Source: Streptomyces exfoliatus (GTDB lineage Bacteria > Actinomycetota > Actinomycetes > Streptomycetales > Streptomycetaceae). Taken from it: DNA of 50,240 bases. Of the stretch, positions 24,651 through 35,505 are shown in pieces. The notes under the pieces are model-generated. The model was not told where the DNA came from and did no database searches. It saw only the letters and a list, made by a program, of their open reading frames with translations. The stretch lies in NCBI RefSeq assembly GCF_000725545.1, contig NZ_JNZP01000039.1, positions 1 through 50,240 on the forward strand, given 5' to 3'. Positions within the stretch are counted from its first letter, which is position 1. Each line of letters opens with the position of its first letter. Made by a program: the position numbers and the translations under genes.

Positions 24651-24764
24651 GCAGCCTGGCGAGGGTCGGCTGAAATTCACAACAGACCCGCGCGGTAATT
24701 TGATTGCCAGTGACACGTGCGGTACTGCTCGATCGGCACGACCGCACGGGTCGTCTTCCCCCCC

Positions 24765-25046
24765 AGGGTGGACCGATACCGTCACCCGCTCCAGGACGAG
24801 GCGGAAGCCCGTGACACCGCCACCGTGCCGCTGGGCGTTGGACACCAACTCGGACACGACCAGCAGCAGATCGTCGACCTGTGCCGGCTCCATCGGACGG
24901 ATGCCCGCCAGCCGTCGCCGGGTGGCCTCTCTGGCCTCGGTGGACGTCCGCACGGCCGCGGTCCGGCCGTCGCGGTCAGGTCGCCCACGACGGTCCGGAC
25001 GCGTGGGTGCACGGGACGGCCAGGCGTCACCCGGGGGCTGCAGCAT
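24765..25046 (-). pseudogene. HATPase_c (RsbW/anti-sigma-like) protein, 3'-truncated
   Basis: From ATG 25046, preceded by AAGGGGGAACC, the frame encodes TEAREATRRRLAGIRP, then VDDLLLVVSELVSNAQRHGG, the N-box helix (E-LVSNA--H) of GHKL ATP-binding domains found in Streptomyces anti-sigma/serine-kinase-like regulators. The match ends after VTVSVHPGGEDDP; the G1/G2 boxes are absent and ISL3 debris follows. It diverges from the DUF1206 gene. Confidence 0.75.
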
Positions 25047-25200
25047 GGTTCCCCCTTCTCCCGACTTCTGGGCATCTGCTCCTCTGTCGCCTTCCCCGGG
25101 TCGCGCGCCGGACACGCCGCGTGGGAGACCTGACTCGAAAGGGGTTGCGATCACCGGGCCGGGGGCAACCGAAGAACCCGGCCCGACGGAGGTGTCAGAC

Positions 25201-26034
25201 GTGATGACAGGAACATGGTCGCCCCGAGCGGCGGCGAGGAGAGCGGCCCGAGGTGACGCGGTGCGGGCGGGTGCCCGCGCGGGTTTCGTGGCGCGCGGAG
25301 TTCTGTACCTGCTCGTGGGACTGCTGGCGGTACGCATCGGCCTCACGGGGGCGAACGAGCAGGCCGACCGGGGCGGAGCCCTGACCGAGGTCGCCGCCAC
25401 ACCGTTCGGTGCCGTACTCCTCTGGGCGCTCGGCGCGGGGCTCGCCGGCATGGCGCTGTGGCGCCTGACGGAGGCCGTGTACGGGGCCGCCGGACCGGAC
25501 GGAGGCAAGGCGGCCAAGCGGACCCAGTCTGCCTTCCGCTTCGTCTTCTACGCCTTCGTTTCCTTCCTCGTCCTGTCCTTCGCCGCGGGCGCCAAGAGCA
25601 GCGGGGCCGGGTCGAGCGACCGGCAGAGCCAGGACGTCACGGGCCGTCTGCTCGGCCAGCCCGGCGGACAGTGGTGGGTCGGCGCGGCGGCGGCCGGCAT
25701 CCTCGTCGCGGGTCTCGTCATCGCGGGGCGCGCCGCCCTGCGGAAGTACCGCACACACCTGCCATGGGCGCGACTGTCGAAGAAGCAGCGCCGTCTCATG
25801 GACGGCACGGGCATCGCCGGCGGTGTCTCCCGCGGCCTGGTCTTCGCAGCCGTCGGCTTCTTCGCACTCAAGGCCGCGATCCAGTTCGACCCCGCCGAGG
25901 CCAAGGGCGTGGACGACGCGATCCGCTCGTTCGCGACGGCCCCGGCCGGACAGTGGCTGCTGGTCGCAGTTGCGGTCGGACTGGCGCTGTTCGGGGTGTT
26001 CTCCTTCGGCCTCGCCAGGTGGCGGAAGTTCTGA
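25201..26034 (+). CDS. DUF1206 membrane protein
   Basis: A 277-residue membrane protein of three homologous two-helix units: ARAGFVARGVLYLLVGLLAV, FRFVFYAFVSFLVLSFA and GGVSRGLVFAAVGFFALKAA, each with the RG--Y/FA--G pattern of DUF1206. The N-terminus and the loops between units are Arg/Lys-rich, facing the cytoplasm. GTG 25201 sits 8 nt after GGAGG; ATG 25204 is the alternative at 11 nt. In actinomycetes these proteins are often near stress and sigma-factor regulators, matching the adjacent HATPase remnant. Function unknown. Confidence 0.88.
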   Translation: MMTGTWSPRAAARRAARGDAVRAGARAGFVARGVLYLLVGLLAVRIGLTGANEQADRGGALTEVAATPFGAVLLWALGAGLAGMALWRLTEAVYGAAGPDGGKAAKRTQSAFRFVFYAFVSFLVLSFAAGAKSSGAGSSDRQSQDVTGRLLGQPGGQWWVGAAAAGILVAGLVIAGRAALRKYRTHLPWARLSKKQRRLMDGTGIAGGVSRGLVFAAVGFFALKAAIQFDPAEAKGVDDAIRSFATAPAGQWLLVAVAVGLALFGVFSFGLARWRKF

Positions 26035-26911: not shown

Positions 26912-27183
26912 GACAGCAGTTCTCCAGCTGGGCTCGGCATACGAGCGGTTCAGAAGTTCTTCACCTCCGTACTGGAAGACGTCGAAGGCCGCCGCGTCGC
27001 TCGACGACGGGATTCCGCGTTCGGTGAAGCCCTGGGTGAGAGCGTCACCCCATGAACCGCGACGCCGTCTGCTGGGCGGCGCGGGGTTCGCCGGTGCTTT
27101 CAGTTGTCCACAGCCAAAATGAGACCGGCAGCGCGGTCCGGCTGTGGGCCCAACGGCGCGCGGGTGGCGCCGGTTCGCTGAAA

Positions 27184-27276
27184 GTGGCCGGCGCGGTGGT
27201 GCCGCAGGGCATGCAAATCCCGCCCGGTTCGCTGGTGGCGGGCGTCCCGGCCAAGGTCAGGCAGCCGGGCGAGCCG
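27184..27276 (+). pseudogene. Hexapeptide (gamma-carbonic-anhydrase-like) C-terminal remnant
   Basis: VAGAVVPQGMQIPPGSLVAG followed by VPAKVR is the last turn of a left-handed beta-helix hexapeptide protein of the gamma-carbonic anhydrase/PaaY type. The His ligands and earlier turns are missing. It lies in a short frame without a start of its own. Confidence 0.75.
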
Positions 27277-27432
27277 TGGCCGTCGGGGCGCCGCCGGAAC
27301 AGGAAGCGACTCCCCATCACCCAAGAAAATGTCACTCTTGGTAATGATTCAGATCATATCGTGACGGTTAGTGATGTCTATTGCGATGCTCGTACCCCGC
27401 CCCTCCCCTGAGAAGTAAGGAGTCACGTCGCC

Positions 27433-28302
27433 ATGCCGATGCTGCTGATCAAGGGCTCGTACCACATCCTCAACGCCCGGCCGGACGGGGACACCGTCCA
27501 TTTCACCCCCGACGATATGACCGAGTGGAACCTCGTCGAGGGGCCTCACAAGGTCGAACACAACGCGTCCGGCAGGGCCCGACTGCGGCTGGAGGCCATC
27601 GACGCGCTGGAGACCCACTACTCCCGGACCGGACCGGAGGTCCACCAGCCGCTGAAGTTCGGTCACGCCGCGCAGGACGAACTGCTGCGCTGGCTCGGCT
27701 TCACCAGCGTGACGCGGGACGCGAACGAGAAGGTCACCGCTGCCACCCCCACCAGCGTGCCCGGCTGGATCCTCACCCGTGGGGCGGCCAAGGATCACCG
27801 CTGCATCGCCCTGGCTGGCCGGGGCACACCCCCAGGCACGAGCGGAACGCAGATCTTCGTCGACGTGCCGATGCTCAAGACCACCGTCAACCACCACCTC
27901 CTCGCCACCGGCCTGGCCTACCCCACGTACTACCGCAGTCTCTTCCCCGACCTGCGCAACGAGCTGACGGCCGCGGTCCATCAGGCGCAGGCCGCCACGC
28001 CCGCCAAGGGGCTGTGGTCCGACGACGACACCCTCAACGGGGCGACCGTCACCGGGATGTCCTCGCTCACCGACGACACCGGCGCGGTGATCCTGCCGAA
28101 GCTCTTCCGGCGGCTGGTGGACTATCTCAACCTCGGCTCGGCAGACCTGAGTGGGTTCCCCACATTCCTGGACCATGCCCAGGACAGGTTCTGGATCCTG
28201 TCCACCGGCCAGCACACCACCGGCCTGGACGCGGTGGTCGAAGTCAGCAACAGCAAGGTGCGGATGACCCACCCTTCCGAAGACCTCGTCTTCGAAGACT
28301 GA
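27433..28302 (+). CDS. Staphylococcal-nuclease-like protein in a GMC oxidoreductase operon
   Basis: A 289-residue cytoplasmic protein, ATG 27433 preceded by AAGGAG. The first 130 residues fit the thermonuclease (SNase) OB fold: PDGDTV (Asp20), LRLEAIDALE (Arg52, Asp57, Glu60, spaced R-x4-D-x2-E exactly as in the SNase active site) and KDHR (Arg123). The mapping to SNase D21, R35, D40, E43 and R87 is mine. The remaining 160 residues are an extension containing FVDVPMLKTTVNHHLLATGL and TYYRSLFPDLRNELTAAVH, of unknown function. No signal peptide is present, unlike secreted SNases. It leads a four-gene operon (gaps of 16, 14 and 10 bp). Confidence 0.75.
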   Translation: MPMLLIKGSYHILNARPDGDTVHFTPDDMTEWNLVEGPHKVEHNASGRARLRLEAIDALETHYSRTGPEVHQPLKFGHAAQDELLRWLGFTSVTRDANEKVTAATPTSVPGWILTRGAAKDHRCIALAGRGTPPGTSGTQIFVDVPMLKTTVNHHLLATGLAYPTYYRSLFPDLRNELTAAVHQAQAATPAKGLWSDDDTLNGATVTGMSSLTDDTGAVILPKLFRRLVDYLNLGSADLSGFPTFLDHAQDRFWILSTGQHTTGLDAVVEVSNSKVRMTHPSEDLVFED

Positions 28303-28318
28303 GCAGGAGGCAGCCGCC

Positions 28319-28717
28319 ATGACCCACGCTGCAGACTTCCGCGCGCTGTCCGAACTGCTCACCGGAGAGCAGCCCCTGGACCAGGCGACGGCCGACGCGC
28401 ACCGCGAGCGCCTCGCCCGCCACTTCCCCGCCGACGTGGACCGTCTCATCGACGCCTACCGTGCCGCTGTCGGCCAGCCGGACCCCGGCGCCGCGCTTTT
28501 CACCGCCGTCAACGCGGACCCGGCGCTCGCGAGGCTTGCGCGGGAGACGCTCGCGATCTGGTACACGGCGCAGTTCACGCGCCCCGACAACACGCAGGAC
28601 GCGCCGGACACACCCTCGCGCTATCGCGCTGGGCTGGTGTGGAAGGTCATCAGCGCCCACCCGCTCTCCGCTGCCCCGGTTCCGGGCGGCTACGGCTACT
28701 GGACCCAGCACCCCTGA
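28319..28717 (+). CDS. Sugar-dehydrogenase small-subunit-like protein, no signal peptide
   Basis: A 132-residue helical protein resembling the gamma subunit of membrane-bound FAD sugar/sorbitol dehydrogenases (FRALSELLTGEQPLDQATAD, then LARETLAIWYTAQF and the C-terminal Trp/Pro-rich YGYWTQHP). The canonical subunit carries a Tat signal and exports the flavoprotein by hitch-hiking. Here the protein begins MTHAADFRALS with no twin-arginine or hydrophobic signal, so the pair probably stays in the cytoplasm. AGGAGG precedes the ATG. It sits directly before the GMC gene, as its partners usually do. Confidence 0.82.
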   Translation: MTHAADFRALSELLTGEQPLDQATADAHRERLARHFPADVDRLIDAYRAAVGQPDPGAALFTAVNADPALARLARETLAIWYTAQFTRPDNTQDAPDTPSRYRAGLVWKVISAHPLSAAPVPGGYGYWTQHP

Positions 28718-28731
28718 GGCAAGGAGACCTG

Positions 28732-30432
28732 ATGGACACCACCTACGACGTCGTCATCATCGGCGCGGGAGTGGCTGGGGCGATGTGCGCGTGCCGGATC
28801 AAGGAGGTGAAGCCGCAGGCGCGGATCCTGCTTCTGGATGCCGGCGACAACGACGTCGATGACGACCAGCGCCAGGCGTTCGTCGACGCCTACCAGGTGT
28901 CGACGGCCAAGAACGTCCCCTCCCCGTACGCGGCGCTGGGCAACAACAAGTTCGGCTACGCGCCCTCCTCGGACGGCACCAGTGACCCCGTCGCCATGAA
29001 CCGGTACTACGTGGAGAGCGGACCGGACCTGTTCAAGAGCGGCTTCCAGCGCATGGTCGGCGGCAGCACCTGGGCATGGCGCGGCAACACACCCCGGTTC
29101 CTGCCGACCGACTTCGACCTCAAGACCCGGTACGGCATCGCCGTGGACTGGCCGCTCACGTACAACGACCTCGAGCCGTACTACGCCCAGGCCGAGGTGG
29201 AACTGGGTGTGTCGGGAAACCGTGACGAGTGGGAGCCGCTCACCCCGCGCAGTACGGACTACCCCATGCCCGGCATCGCTGCCAGCTACGGCGACGAGCT
29301 CGTACGCGCCGCCCTGGCCGATATCGAGCCGATCGACGGCACTCCCGTCACCGTCCTCACCACTCCCCAGGCCCGCAACTCGGAGGAGTACCAGGGGCGC
29401 AGCGCCTGCCAGGGCAACTCCAGCTGTATCCCGATCTGCCCGTCCGGTGCGAAGTACGACGCCTCGGTCCATGTCCGCCGAGCCCGCGACGAGCTCGACG
29501 TCCAGGTGCGCACCGGCTGTACCGTCGCCCGCCTGGTCCCGCGGCCCGGCAACGTCTCCCCCACCGTCGTCTTCCGGGACTGGACCACCACCGAGCGGGC
29601 CGAGGAGCAGGTGAACGGCACGCACGTCGTGCTGGCCGTGAACGCCATCGAAACCCCGAAGCTGTGGCTGCTCTCCGGACTGGACAACCGCAGCGACCAG
29701 GTCGGCCGCAACCTCATGGACCATCTCGCCGAAGAGGTCGTCGGCCTGTTCGGCCAGCCCGTCTTCCCCTACCGCGGCCCGCAGTCGACGCTCAGTATCG
29801 AGACGTTCCGCGACGGGCCGTGGCGGCGCACCACCGGCGCGTTCCGCATGACGATCGGCAACGACGGATGGGGCCGCTTCGAATCACCGAGCTTGGCAGT
29901 CGACAAGCTGATGTGGGATCCGGCCGCCAAGAAGCTCAAGCACTACGGCACCGAACTGCAGGACGCGCTGGCCGAGCGGGTCACCCGCATGCTGCGCATC
30001 GGCTACTCCACCGAGCAGCTCCCCGACTCCGCCAACCGGGTCACCCTCTCCGACGAGAGGGACGGCCTGGACATTCCCCGCCCCAAGATCGCCTTCAAGA
30101 TCGACGACTACTCCAAGCGAGCCCTGGCCTACGGCCACTCCGTCGCCCGCCGTATCTGGCAGCACATGGAGGACACCGCCGGCGCGGAGGAGATCGAACC
30201 CCTGCAGCCGACGCTGAAGTTCAACGGAGCCGGCCACCCCATGGGCACCACCCGCATGGGAACCGACCGGGCGACTTCCGTGGTCAACGCGGACGGGCTC
30301 TCCCACGCCCACACCAACCTGTGGGTCGTGGGCCCGTCCGTCTTCCCCACCGGAAGCACGGCCAACCCCACGCTCACCCTGGCCGCCCTGACGCTGCGCA
30401 CCGCCGACAAGCTCGCCACCACCCTCCCGTGA
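28732..30432 (+). CDS. GMC-family FAD oxidoreductase (sugar/polyol dehydrogenase large-subunit type)
   Basis: A 566-residue flavoprotein of the glucose-methanol-choline family. The FAD-binding motif GAGVAG spans residues 11-16. The catalytic pair is His502 (GAGHPMGTTRMG) and Asn545 (STANPTLT). Cys226, Cys232 and Cys236 lie in a stretch like the Fe-S-binding cysteine region of bacterial FAD-glucose dehydrogenases (C-x5-C-x3-C, GNSSCIPICPSGAKY). AAGGAG precedes ATG 28732. No signal peptide is present. It probably oxidises a sugar or polyol and passes electrons through the cluster to an acceptor; no cytochrome c subunit is encoded nearby, so the acceptor is unknown. Confidence 0.9.
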   Translation: MDTTYDVVIIGAGVAGAMCACRIKEVKPQARILLLDAGDNDVDDDQRQAFVDAYQVSTAKNVPSPYAALGNNKFGYAPSSDGTSDPVAMNRYYVESGPDLFKSGFQRMVGGSTWAWRGNTPRFLPTDFDLKTRYGIAVDWPLTYNDLEPYYAQAEVELGVSGNRDEWEPLTPRSTDYPMPGIAASYGDELVRAALADIEPIDGTPVTVLTTPQARNSEEYQGRSACQGNSSCIPICPSGAKYDASVHVRRARDELDVQVRTGCTVARLVPRPGNVSPTVVFRDWTTTERAEEQVNGTHVVLAVNAIETPKLWLLSGLDNRSDQVGRNLMDHLAEEVVGLFGQPVFPYRGPQSTLSIETFRDGPWRRTTGAFRMTIGNDGWGRFESPSLAVDKLMWDPAAKKLKHYGTELQDALAERVTRMLRIGYSTEQLPDSANRVTLSDERDGLDIPRPKIAFKIDDYSKRALAYGHSVARRIWQHMEDTAGAEEIEPLQPTLKFNGAGHPMGTTRMGTDRATSVVNADGLSHAHTNLWVVGPSVFPTGSTANPTLTLAALTLRTADKLATTLP

Positions 30433-30442
30433 AGCAGCCACC

Positions 30443-31000
30443 GTGACCGTCACCACGCGGCTGACCATCGCCCGCCACGGACAAGCCCGGTGCAACGTCG
30501 ACGGCCGCGTCGGCGGCCCCAAGACCTGCACCGGGCTCACCGACCACGGACGCGACCAGATCGAACTGCTGGCCGCCCGGCTCGCCGCCCAACAGCGCAC
30601 CGGACCCGCCTTCGACGCCCTGTACACAGGCCCCAGGCCCCGCCTGCAGGAAAGCGGCCGCATCCTCGCCCACGCCCGCCCCGACCAGCCCTACGCACCC
30701 GGCTCGGACAGCTGGAACGGCTACCTCACCAGGGCAGCCACGCACCTGGCCGCCCTCCTCGAGCACCACCAGGGCCAGAACATCCTGATCGCCGCACACG
30801 GCGAAACCATCCACGCCGCCTACCATCTCCTGCTCCAGGTCCCCGTCCAGACAAGCGCGCACACGGGCCTCGGAACGAACCACGCCGGCCTGACCCGCTT
30901 CGAGCGCCACCACGACCAGTACGGAAACCAGTACTGGGTTCTCGCCGTCCTCAACGACACCGCCCACCTCAACGACCGTGCGACGCAAAGCGATCAGTGA
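30443..31000 (+). CDS. Histidine phosphatase (phosphoglycerate-mutase-like), short
   Basis: A 185-residue member of the histidine phosphatase superfamily: ARHGQARCN near the N-terminus (RHG with phospho-accepting His12) and the second catalytic His in ILIAAHGETIHAAYHLL. GTG 30443 lies 10 bp after the GMC stop. Typical members run 200-230 residues; the segment between GRILA and HARPDQPYAPGSDSW looks about 30 residues short, so an internal deletion is possible but the catalytic set is intact. It is the last gene of the SNase/GMC operon and may dephosphorylate a sugar phosphate related to the dehydrogenase substrate. Confidence 0.82.
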   Translation: MTVTTRLTIARHGQARCNVDGRVGGPKTCTGLTDHGRDQIELLAARLAAQQRTGPAFDALYTGPRPRLQESGRILAHARPDQPYAPGSDSWNGYLTRAATHLAALLEHHQGQNILIAAHGETIHAAYHLLLQVPVQTSAHTGLGTNHAGLTRFERHHDQYGNQYWVLAVLNDTAHLNDRATQSDQ

Positions 31001-33591: not shown

Positions 33592-33957
33592 TCACCGACC
33601 GGCCGGGTCCCGGGGCAGCAGCGAACCGAGGGGGCCGAGATCCAGGTTCAGGTCGTCCATGGTCAGGCCGTAGCGCGTGCACAGCTCCTCCATGCGCTCC
33701 TCCAGGATCATCAGCGTCATGCCGACGCGTTCTTCCTCCTCCTCGCCGAGGTCGCCCTGCTCGACCCGGTGGACGGCGGTGCGCTCCATCAGCTGGCGCA
33801 GCAACTCCACGATCGTCAGGACGAGTTTGATGAGGTCCCGCTCCACCGTGTCTGAATCCGTGGCGAGCCGCTGCGTCAGCGCATGGCCCGCGGCGGCGCC
33901 GTCCGGTGCCTTCACGAGCTCCTCCAGTCCGTGCCGCACCACGCGATCAGGGCTCAT
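33592..33957 (-). CDS. gvpK: Gas vesicle protein GvpK
   Basis: A 121-residue GvpK-family protein: LIKLVLTIVELLRQLMERTA followed by VEQGDLGEEEEERVGMTLM and a C-terminal LTMDDLNLDLGPLG. GvpK is an accessory protein needed for vesicle assembly, mostly helical. ATG 33957 overlaps the gvpS stop (ATGA). It is the last conserved gvp gene of the cluster, as in other streptomycetes. Confidence 0.92.
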   Translation of the reverse strand: MSPDRVVRHGLEELVKAPDGAAAGHALTQRLATDSDTVERDLIKLVLTIVELLRQLMERTAVHRVEQGDLGEEEEERVGMTLMILEERMEELCTRYGLTMDDLNLDLGPLGSLLPRDPAGR

Positions 33958-34211
33958 ACCGTGTCCTCCTCGGGGTGCTCCGGTGCGGCCGCGCGGGCCC
34001 AGGGCGCAGGGTCCTCGGCGGTGATCGACCGGATGACCGCCCGCAGGTTGATGTGGACGAGGTCCACGTCGGCGATGGACAGGACGAGGTCACCGGTCAG
34101 GACCGCGCCTCCGGTCAGCAGGCGGTCCAGCAGGTCGATCAGGGCGACCGGCGGCCCGGCGAGCCGGTCGCCCGGCTCGTGCCGCCCGTCGTCCACGACT
34201 TGGGTTCTCAT
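33954..34211 (-). CDS. gvpS: Gas vesicle protein GvpS (GvpA/J/M family)
   Basis: An 85-residue protein with the GvpA-fold core VALIDLLDRLLTGGAVLTGD followed by LVLSIADVDLVHINLRAVI: the helix-strand-turn-strand that builds the ribbed shell. It is shorter than GvpA and lacks the C-terminal extension. ATG 34211 overlaps the gvpL stop. GvpA-like paralogues such as GvpJ, GvpM and GvpS are minor shell or nucleation proteins. Confidence 0.88.
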   Translation of the reverse strand: MRTQVVDDGRHEPGDRLAGPPVALIDLLDRLLTGGAVLTGDLVLSIADVDLVHINLRAVIRSITAEDPAPWARAAAPEHPEEDTV

Positions 34212-35101
34212 CGGGGCGCCGTACCTCCCTCGCCGCCCTCGGTGACGGGCGAGGCGAAGGAGTACGGCGCCCACGGTCCGGTGACCTCCACCCTGACCCC
34301 CGCCACCCCGCTCCCGGCCGCCTCCACCTCCGCGCGGAACCGCGCCTCGGCGTTCGCGGGCACCAGATAGGCGTGGTTGGCGACGTTCATGCCGCGCTCG
34401 CCGGACAGTTCGCCCTGCTGCGTACGGTGGGCGACGGAGGCCCGAGCGGTCTCCAGCACCGCCCGCGTCACCTGACCCCTAACCTCCTCGGCCGCCCGGT
34501 ATAGGTCCTCGGTGCCGCGCCGCTGCCGCCTGCGCTGCTGGAGGTACGCCCTGCCCGGGCTCGTCGGCCCCGACCCGTGCGCCGCTCGGTGCTCCGGGGC
34601 GGGGGGCGAGGCGGCGGGGTCCACGAAGACCTTCACTCCCAGTTCGACGTGACCGTCCAGCCACGTCAGCATGTCGGTGAAGCCGCCCCGGTGCGCGAGG
34701 AGCATCCCGGTCACCCCCTCCACGTCGGAGTACACCGTGGCCAGGCGGAGGGGGAGGACGGCGGTCCGCGCGAACGCGGCGTCGACGACGGCGTGGTGGG
34801 CGCGGGCGAGCTCTTCGAGCCCCGGGAGGTGTTCCAGCCGGCGGCGCAGCGGCTCCTCGCCGAAGGCCGCGGCCGGTACGTCCGACACCAGGGCCACCAG
34901 GCCGCCCTCCGCGACCAGCCGCACGTCGTGCCCGTCCACCCCGCCTCCGGGTCCCGCGAGCGGTGCGAGCGTCCCGTCGTCCCGGCCGATGCCGTAGACG
35001 TACACGCGCATCTGGGACTGGGGCTGGTCGCGGGTCCGGTCCCGGGCCCGGACGTGGGCCGTGGCTTCGGTGCGGTTGTCGGTCCGGTCGGTCGTGCTCA
35101 T
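34208..35101 (-). CDS. gvpL: Gas vesicle protein GvpL (GvpF/L family)
   Basis: A 297-residue GvpF/GvpL-family protein. ATG 35101 follows GGAGGAGG; a 30-residue hydrophilic N-terminus precedes the domain. Conserved parts are MRVYVYGIGRDDG, RLVAEGGLVALVSDVPA, HHAVVDAAFARTAVLPLRLA and the closing GPWAPYSFA. An Arg/Gln-rich loop (YLQQRRRQRRGTEDLY) lies between the two halves. GvpF/L are thought to act as nucleation chaperones for GvpA. It overlaps gvpJ and gvpS by four bases each. Confidence 0.9.
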   Translation of the reverse strand: MSTTDRTDNRTEATAHVRARDRTRDQPQSQMRVYVYGIGRDDGTLAPLAGPGGGVDGHDVRLVAEGGLVALVSDVPAAAFGEEPLRRRLEHLPGLEELARAHHAVVDAAFARTAVLPLRLATVYSDVEGVTGMLLAHRGGFTDMLTWLDGHVELGVKVFVDPAASPPAPEHRAAHGSGPTSPGRAYLQQRRRQRRGTEDLYRAAEEVRGQVTRAVLETARASVAHRTQQGELSGERGMNVANHAYLVPANAEARFRAEVEAAGSGVAGVRVEVTGPWAPYSFASPVTEGGEGGTAPR

Positions 35102-35505
35102 CGTGCCTCCTCCGTCCCGTCGTCCGTGACGGCCCTCTGCCCGCCGTCCCGCAGGCGGGCGAGTTCGGCGCGCAACAGCTCGTTCTCGTCGACCAGTTGC
35201 CGCTCCCGCCGGGACCCGCCGTCGAGGGGGGCGGGCGCACGCGCCCGGGAGGAGAGCGAGGGATCGTGCTCCCACCAGTCGATCCCCATCTCCTTCGCCT
35301 TGTCGACCGAGGCGACCAGCAGGCGGAGCTTGATGGTCAGCAACTCGATGTCGAGAAGGTTGATCTGGATGTCACCGGCGATCACGACGCCCTTGTCGAG
35401 CACGCGTTCCAGGATGTCCGCGAGGTTCGCAGACGAGCCCTGTCGGCTGCTCGGCGGTCCGGCGTGCGACGAGGCCGGCAGGCGGCCCGCGAAGGACTCG
35501 GACAA
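35098..35505 (-). CDS. gvpJ: Gas vesicle protein GvpJ (GvpA/J/M family)
   Basis: A 135-residue minor shell protein with the GvpA-like core NLADILERVLDKGVVIAGDI, then LLDIELLTIKLRLLVASVDK, followed by MGIDWWEHDPSLSS and a charged C-terminal helix rich in Arg/Glu. The start is TTG 35505, supported by GGAGAGGGG at good spacing; no ATG or GTG is closer. It begins 73 bp after gvpZ. That gap contains a short tandem repeat of GGTCAGA (35562-35582). Confidence 0.9.
   Translation of the reverse strand: MSESFAGRLPASSHAGPPSSRQGSSANLADILERVLDKGVVIAGDIQINLLDIELLTIKLRLLVASVDKAKEMGIDWWEHDPSLSSRARAPAPLDGGSRRERQLVDENELLRAELARLRDGGQRAVTDDGTEEAR

What the first reader, a model, noticed from the sequence alone, without database searches (positions are those of the whole stretch)
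27433..31000. Four-gene operon joining an SNase-fold protein, a cytoplasmic GMC dehydrogenase pair and a histidine phosphatase
The sequence shows four plus-strand genes with gaps of 16, 14 and 10 bp. The first keeps the full thermonuclease catalytic pattern (Asp20, Arg52, Asp57, Glu60, Arg123), yet has no signal peptide and is followed by subunits of a sugar-dehydrogenase type. I know of no described system pairing a nuclease fold with a GMC dehydrogenase. One possibility is a redox- or metabolite-gated nuclease with the phosphatase acting on the same metabolite; another is that the SNase domain binds rather than cuts nucleic acid.
Basis: partly seen in the sequence, partly recalled or inferred. 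Interest (0 to 1): 0.72.

Follow-up and report, generated by a model that had tools for sequence, protein, structure and literature searches.

The report
Nuclease-fold gene paired with sugar-type dehydrogenase
A soil bacterium carries a small accessory gene row in which a staphylococcal-nuclease-like protein sits in front of a two-subunit flavin dehydrogenase that lacks the usual export signal; the pairing recurs in relatives and in one distant phylum, but what it does is still untested.

Summary
In detail: four plus-strand genes (27433-31000), gaps 16/14/10 bp. Gene 1 (SN) has the staphylococcal-nuclease fold by structure prediction, an active-site pattern invariant in 89 of 89 homologues, and a C-terminal region matched to no solved fold. 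Genes 2-3 (SM-GMC) are the small subunit and FAD/3Fe-4S catalytic subunit of a dehydrogenase of the fructose/FAD-glucose dehydrogenase type, without Tat signal or cytochrome gene beside them: probably cytosolic. Gene 4 is a histidine phosphatase 37 codons shorter than its two full-length relatives.

The link is real but asymmetric. SN is a broad family, mostly alone: SM-GMC follows it in 3 of 80 loci. But the 5 genomes (of 297) with a full-length GMC orthologue all carry SN, adjacent in 4 (broken in one). Decayed SM/GMC scraps lie beside four lone SNs, so repeated loss is the simpler history. Two Methylobacterium plasmids carry SN divergent to a related SM-GMC pair. The phosphatase is optional.

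Function is inferred: SN probably cuts a phosphodiester inside the cell and the dehydrogenase acts on a sugar-containing product; passenger linkage is a close rival. A new variant built from known parts, not a proven system.

The parts
27433..28302 (+). SN: SNase-fold protein, 289 aa, no signal peptide seen
27436..28020 (+). SNase (OB-fold) domain, residues 2-196, with D20, R52, D57, E60, R123
   Evidence: model range matched by VIA-align; residues invariant in 89 of 89 homologues
28021..28299 (+). C-terminal region, residues 197-289, conserved (PKLFRR core), no convincing match among solved folds
28319..28717 (+). SM: small subunit of a GMC dehydrogenase, no Tat signal, no cysteine
   Evidence: PF12318 FAD-SLDH 31.9 bits; N-terminus; Cys count 0
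28732..30432 (+). GMC: FAD/3Fe-4S dehydrogenase catalytic subunit, 566 aa
   Evidence: Pfam GMC N and C; PDB 6a2u glucose dehydrogenase E 4.9e-87, 7w2j fructose dehydrogenase E 1.8e-71
29407..29439 (+). predicted 3Fe-4S ligands Cys226, Cys232, Cys236 of GMC
   Evidence: align with BcGDH Cys212/218/222; C in 126, 125 and 125 of 126 GMC rows, the remaining row having a gap
30443..31000 (+). HP: histidine phosphatase (branch 1), GTG start, shortened
   Evidence: PF00300 65.5 bits
30671..30673 (+). place where 37 codons of the HP central insert are absent compared with relatives
   Evidence: alignment with L032 and L036 HP; split match, residues 1-77 and 114-214 of the L032 protein

Best explanation
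An accessory, probably co-transcribed cassette with core SN-SM-GMC and an optional HP. Supported by calls: SN has the SNase fold with an intact active-site pattern plus a C-terminal extension; GMC-SM is related to fructose/FAD-glucose dehydrogenases, keeps the 3Fe-4S ligand cysteines, and lacks an export signal, the inter-subunit disulfide cysteines and a cytochrome gene in the row; the three genes recur in one order in Streptomycetaceae, and SM-GMC has been lost beside some SNs. Inferred: that one ancestral cassette lost SM-GMC many times; that the pair is cytosolic; and the mechanism. SN would be a phosphodiesterase/nuclease working inside the cell by itself (hence the many lone SNs); where present, GMC-SM would oxidise a hydroxyl of a sugar-containing product that SN makes available, passing electrons from FAD to 3Fe-4S to an unknown acceptor, and HP, where intact, would first remove a phosphate. 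Proposed order: phosphodiester, phosphorylated product, dephosphorylated sugar or nucleoside, oxidised product. The substrate is not known.
For: Fold. Invariant active-site residues. GMC type and Fe-S ligands. No Tat signal or hydrophobic N-terminus on SM, whereas the small subunit of a cytochrome-partnered relative (Pantoea, L190) has both. Same order and short gaps in linked cassettes. Full-length GMC orthologues (64% or more) in 5 of 297 genomes, all 5 carrying SN and 4 adjacent (SN frame-split in one of the four), against SN in 47 of 297. SN and GMC pairwise identities r=0.92 (28 pairs, 8 actinobacterial cassettes). Relics beside SN: L050, L100, L109, L203. Distant occurrence in Methylobacterium. 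HP homologues elsewhere sit with epimerase, methyltransferase and APH-type kinase genes, a sugar-like context.
Against: 75 of 80 SN loci show no SM or GMC match nearby. The linkage may be one ancestral event in Streptomycetaceae plus one in Methylobacterium, few independent events. Correlated identities are also expected from plain vertical inheritance. The linked label is scattered on the SN tree, which a count of changes cannot assign to loss rather than gain. HP is absent from 8 of 13 cassettes examined and shortened here. Classical SNase needs millimolar Ca2+ (recalled), scarce in cytosol. No assay was seen.
Confidence: 0.4

Rival explanations
1. Passenger linkage: SN and SM-GMC do unrelated jobs, became neighbours on an accessory region and have been inherited together, decaying piece by piece.
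For: SN mostly alone; linked label scattered over the SN tree, 9-10 changes, shuffled mean 11.6; decay relics; plasmid-borne copies and arm locations: 10 of 13 SN places on contigs over 7 Mb (those among the first 30 loci plus the split G191 copy) lie within 20% of a contig end, where 40% would be expected by area.
Against: All 5 sampled genomes with full-length GMC orthologues also carry SN, including one where the two are not adjacent; same gene order down to 50% SN identity; a separate divergent arrangement in Methylobacterium.
Confidence: 0.35
2. Redox- or metabolite-gated nuclease: SN physically associates with SM or GMC and its cutting is switched by the flavin or Fe-S state.
For: Close linkage; intact SN active site; a conserved C-terminal region without a convincing solved relative that could be a docking part.
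Against: The C-terminal region is also kept in SNs without a GMC neighbour (15 of the 19 rows), so it is not a GMC-specific dock; lone SNs would be ungated. No complex prediction was run.
Confidence: 0.1
3. Nucleic-acid-binding rather than cutting SNase fold, acting as a scaffold or regulator.
For: SND1-type proteins use SNase folds for binding (recalled); SND1 chains are among the fold matches.
Against: D20, R52, D57, E60, R123 invariant in 89 of 89, hard to explain without catalysis.
Confidence: 0.1
4. Anti-phage or genome-defence module in which the dehydrogenase makes or senses a signal that arms SN.
For: Patchy, partly plasmid-borne.
Against: No PADLOC match for any of the four proteins at E up to 1; no SN match in 50,697 phage records at E<=0.01; no gene family within 3 kb of SN in more than 6 of 81 loci by a rough ORF caller.
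Confidence: 0.05

Closest known systems
Staphylococcal nuclease (thermonuclease) family, PF00565
   Different: No signal peptide seen, about 21% identity, an extra 93-residue C-terminal region, below the Pfam cut-off in this sequence
FAD glucose dehydrogenase of Burkholderia cepacia (BcGDH, 6a2u) and fructose dehydrogenase (7w2j)
   Same: GMC catalytic subunit with 3Fe-4S ligand cysteines and a PF12318-type small subunit
   Different: No Tat signal, Gln in place of disulfide-forming Cys213, no Cys in the window's SM, no cytochrome gene in the row, SN upstream instead
SM-GMC pairs inside biosynthetic-looking clusters (Roseibium, Sinorhizobium plasmids)
   Same: GMC 38-40% identical to the cyanobacterial relative P0155 used as query, preceded by a small gene 24-27% identical to SM without a Tat motif
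   Different: Annotated neighbours are aminotransferase and kinase genes, not SN
Methylobacterium SN / SM-GMC-ferritin-like locus (two plasmids)
   Same: All three core genes adjacent
   Different: SN divergent, PF12902 ferritin-like protein in place of HP, GMC 45% and SN 40% identical

Membership tests
SNase family | OB/SNase fold | tested here: met
   (predicted model)
SNase family | active-site Asp, Arg, Asp, Glu, Arg | tested here: met
   pairing with SNase numbering recalled
SNase family | Pfam gathering score | tested here: not met
   20.0 vs 21 for the window protein; relatives 24.0 and 24.9 pass
SNase family | Ca2+-dependent nuclease activity | not testable with these tools
   needs purified protein
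FAD-GDH / fructose dehydrogenase complex | GMC catalytic subunit | tested here: met
FAD-GDH / fructose dehydrogenase complex | three 3Fe-4S ligand cysteines | tested here: met
FAD-GDH / fructose dehydrogenase complex | small hitchhiker-type subunit | tested here: met
   PF12318 above cut-off
FAD-GDH / fructose dehydrogenase complex | Tat signal on the small subunit | tested here: not met
FAD-GDH / fructose dehydrogenase complex | multi-heme cytochrome c subunit in the operon | tested here: not met
   none among the four genes; rest of the genome not searched
Histidine phosphatase branch 1 | Pfam profile and RHG motif | tested here: met
   RHG seen in the translation
Histidine phosphatase branch 1 | complete central insert as in operon relatives | tested here: not met
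   37 codons absent against L032 and L036
Known anti-phage system | match to a PADLOC model | tested here: not met
   no match at E up to 1

The most novel reading that the evidence does not exclude
The cassette is a nucleic-acid-to-oxidised-nucleoside pathway: an intracellular SNase releases 3'-nucleotides, a phosphatase frees the nucleoside, and a cytosolic FAD/3Fe-4S GMC dehydrogenase oxidises its sugar, making a signal, toxin or antibiotic precursor. A precedent for the last step, nucleoside oxidase, is recalled; only its title was seen, in a reference list.
Probability: 0.12. Interest if true: 0.75.

Novelty: new variant of a known kind. Interest (0 to 1): 0.45.

Why it matters
A large family of signal-less bacterial SNase-fold proteins with an intact active site has no role assigned in anything these searches returned. 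A recurring partnership with a defined flavin/Fe-S dehydrogenase is a concrete handle on its substrate: in the sampled genomes the orthologous dehydrogenase occurs only where SN does, not the reverse, which makes the order of dependence testable. It also points to a probably cytosolic branch of an enzyme class known mainly as exported, cytochrome-coupled dehydrogenases.

Tried and rejected
A common neighbour for lone SNs: 80 loci plus the window were clustered by gene content with a rough ORF caller that misread some frames, SN itself being caught in 77 of 81. No gene family lies within 3 kb of SN in more than 6 loci; one six-locus block (first member L068) looks like synteny of related genomes.

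Outside Streptomycetaceae: in one other actinobacterial family a penicillin-binding protein gene precedes SN in 2 of 3 fetched loci (L180, L181); the third, L182, has only 1 kb upstream and shows none. The weak G484 hit was not fetched.

Phage origin: no phage record matches SN at E<=0.01. Viral contigs: no relative of the GMC, by a scan that reaches close relatives only. Defence library: none.

Distant-type GMCs: 71 of 297 genomes have some GMC at E<=1e-40. Comparing the tables by eye, none of the distant ones (about 34-43%) lies within 5 kb of an SN, so only the orthologous subfamily is linked.

Weak SM or GMC-like hits downstream of SN in L042, L079, L084 and L088 (E 1e-4 to 0.008) were not counted as relics.

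Known fold for the SN C-terminal region: none found; the isolated model is only moderately confident, so no new fold is claimed.

Literature: searches listed no paper on an SNase/GMC operon; only titles and abstract starts were seen there, in an open-licence library. The 1997 nucleoside oxidase paper is not held; what I know of it is recalled and is not used as evidence.

Checks that missed: the active-site Asn check landed on its neighbour Pro546, so only His502 (H in 125 of 126, one gap) was checked. The adjacency probability printed is not used, because the genomes are related.
Full report
Observation. SN (289 aa) scores 20.0 bits with Pfam SNase, just under the cut-off; SM (132 aa) passes PF12318; GMC (566 aa) passes both GMC domains; HP (185 aa) passes PF00300. 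No NCBIfam model matches SN or SM, and none of the 25 (of 46) rows shown for GMC or the 15 for HP reaches its curated cut-off. The own genome has one SN; the only other hit is a 35-residue match at E 0.12.

The dehydrogenase. GMC is nearest to BcGDH (6a2u, E 4.9e-87) and fructose dehydrogenase (7w2j, E 1.8e-71) among solved structures. Passages of PMC6719666 name Cys212, Cys218 and Cys222 as 3Fe-4S ligands and Cys213 as the disulfide partner of the small subunit. The three ligands are C in the window and in 126, 125 and 125 of 126 GMC rows, the remaining row having a gap; the fourth position is Gln here. SM has no cysteine in 6 of 9 cassettes and one in the other 3. Passages of PMC9727119 describe the small subunit as a Tat hitch-hiker; here SM has neither twin arginine nor a hydrophobic stretch, whereas the Pantoea small subunit beside a cytochrome c gene has both. 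The azospirillum relative, also beside a cytochrome gene, shows no Tat motif at its annotated start, so the absence of a motif alone is not decisive. A cytosolic enzyme is therefore an inference.

How widespread is the link. SN has 1656 relatives at E<=0.001 (120 listed) and 3003 with the Methylobacterium query (120 listed, candidates capped). A genome scan found 373 relatives and kept the best 80. Of those 80, SM and GMC follow SN in 3 (L032, L036, L038), GMC scraps lie beside 2 (L050, L109), and 75 show no SM, GMC or HP match; L041, L067 and L110 have under 400 bp downstream and can hardly be judged. A closer look at the 77 without an intact cassette adds an SM scrap in L100. In 297 Streptomycetaceae genomes SN is found in 47, some hits partial or distant. 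GMC at 64% or more, full length, is found in 5: next to SM and SN in G000, G069, G065 and G191 (the adjacent SN of G191 is split over two frames), and with SM but not SN in G211, which has SN on another contig. A sixth genome, G231, holds only the GMC end and an HP piece, with SN elsewhere. In the protein lists two further SN/GMC pairs have the same longest-contig length (P0009/P0122, P0029/P0123) and so probably share a contig; two more such pairs are L036 and L038 again. In 72,556 plasmid records SN occurs in 9. Five have SM-GMC beside it: S. yangpuensis, S. lavendulae, Kitasatospora NBC_01519 (two identical cassettes seen; a third listed place was not looked at) and two Methylobacterium plasmids. 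Four do not: HUAS 14-6, Embleya, Nonomuraea and NBC_01001, the last with an SM start 17 bp after the annotated SN gene. In a phylum-wide sample SN is in 7 of 396; regions fetched from four genomes of other families show no SM or GMC match.

History. On a FastTree of 105 SN rows (12 labelled linked, two of them by shared contig length alone) the linked label needs 10 changes, 9 when protein rows of unknown context are left out; the shuffled mean is 11.6 and 29 of 500 shuffles were as low. Such a count cannot tell gain from loss. Because the same order and spacing recur and scraps persist beside lone SNs, repeated loss is the simpler reading. Identities of SN and GMC rise and fall together (r 0.92 over 28 pairs; 0.94 over 36 with Methylobacterium), as common descent predicts. 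Rough Nei-Gojobori dN/dS of the window against L032, L036, L038 and L168 is 0.38-0.51 for SN, 0.17-0.21 for GMC and 0.14-0.41 for SM; against the more distant L161, L163, L169 and L167 it rises to 0.66-0.75, 0.40-0.61 and 0.34-0.81, where saturation and high G+C make it unreliable. The 32 actinobacterial GMC rows form one side of a branch (support 93); Methylobacterium's GMC lies on a long branch elsewhere, so its pairing with SN may be independent.

The phosphatase. Of 13 GMC cassettes examined, HP is full length in L032 and L036, 37 codons short in the window, a scrap in L168 and L205, and not found in L038, L161, L162, L163, L164, L167, L169 and L170 (L169 and L170 identical); a further scrap follows the GMC remnant of L165. 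HP homologues are in 21 of 297 genomes at E<=1e-15. Ten loci with 47-54% homologues were fetched: an epimerase-type gene is near HP in 9 of 10, a methyltransferase in 8 of 10 (Pfam names from L197). So HP was perhaps recruited from sugar metabolism and is not a core partner.

Mechanism. The asymmetry (orthologous GMC seen only in genomes with SN, SN common without it) suggests that SN supplies something GMC-SM uses. I prefer SN as phosphodiesterase and GMC-SM as dehydrogenase of a product, with passenger linkage as a close rival. Nothing here shows the substrate.

Noticed in passing
window 33592-35275, minus strand: Gas vesicle genes GvpK (33592-33957) and GvpL/GvpF (34208-35275) lie downstream of the operon; a DUF1206 protein (24700-26034) lies upstream.
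   Followed up: partly
window 27052-27411, plus strand: An open frame just upstream of SN reads like the tail of a hexapeptide-repeat transferase or gamma carbonic anhydrase (recalled impression; no Pfam match), perhaps a gene remnant.
   Followed up: partly
L167 4561-5796: Methylobacterium SM-GMC is followed by a PF12902 ferritin-like protein (123.9 bits), a different partner from HP.
   Followed up: partly
L169 and L170 (Kitasatospora sp. NBC_01519 plasmid): Two SN-SM-GMC cassettes of identical sequence on one 1.7-Mb linear plasmid, in opposite orientation and about 130 kb apart.
   Followed up: partly
L033: A second SN-like gene, 39% identical to the window SN, lies directly upstream of the matched SN.
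   Followed up: no
P0152-P0172 and P0181: GMCs 56-63% identical to the window's occur in cyanobacteria (Acaryochloridaceae P0155, Chamaesiphon P0181) and unnamed sources, closer than Methylobacterium's; their gene context was not reached.
   Followed up: no
L180 and L181: In another actinobacterial family SN follows a penicillin-binding protein gene and precedes a conserved 151-152 aa protein without Pfam match.
   Followed up: no
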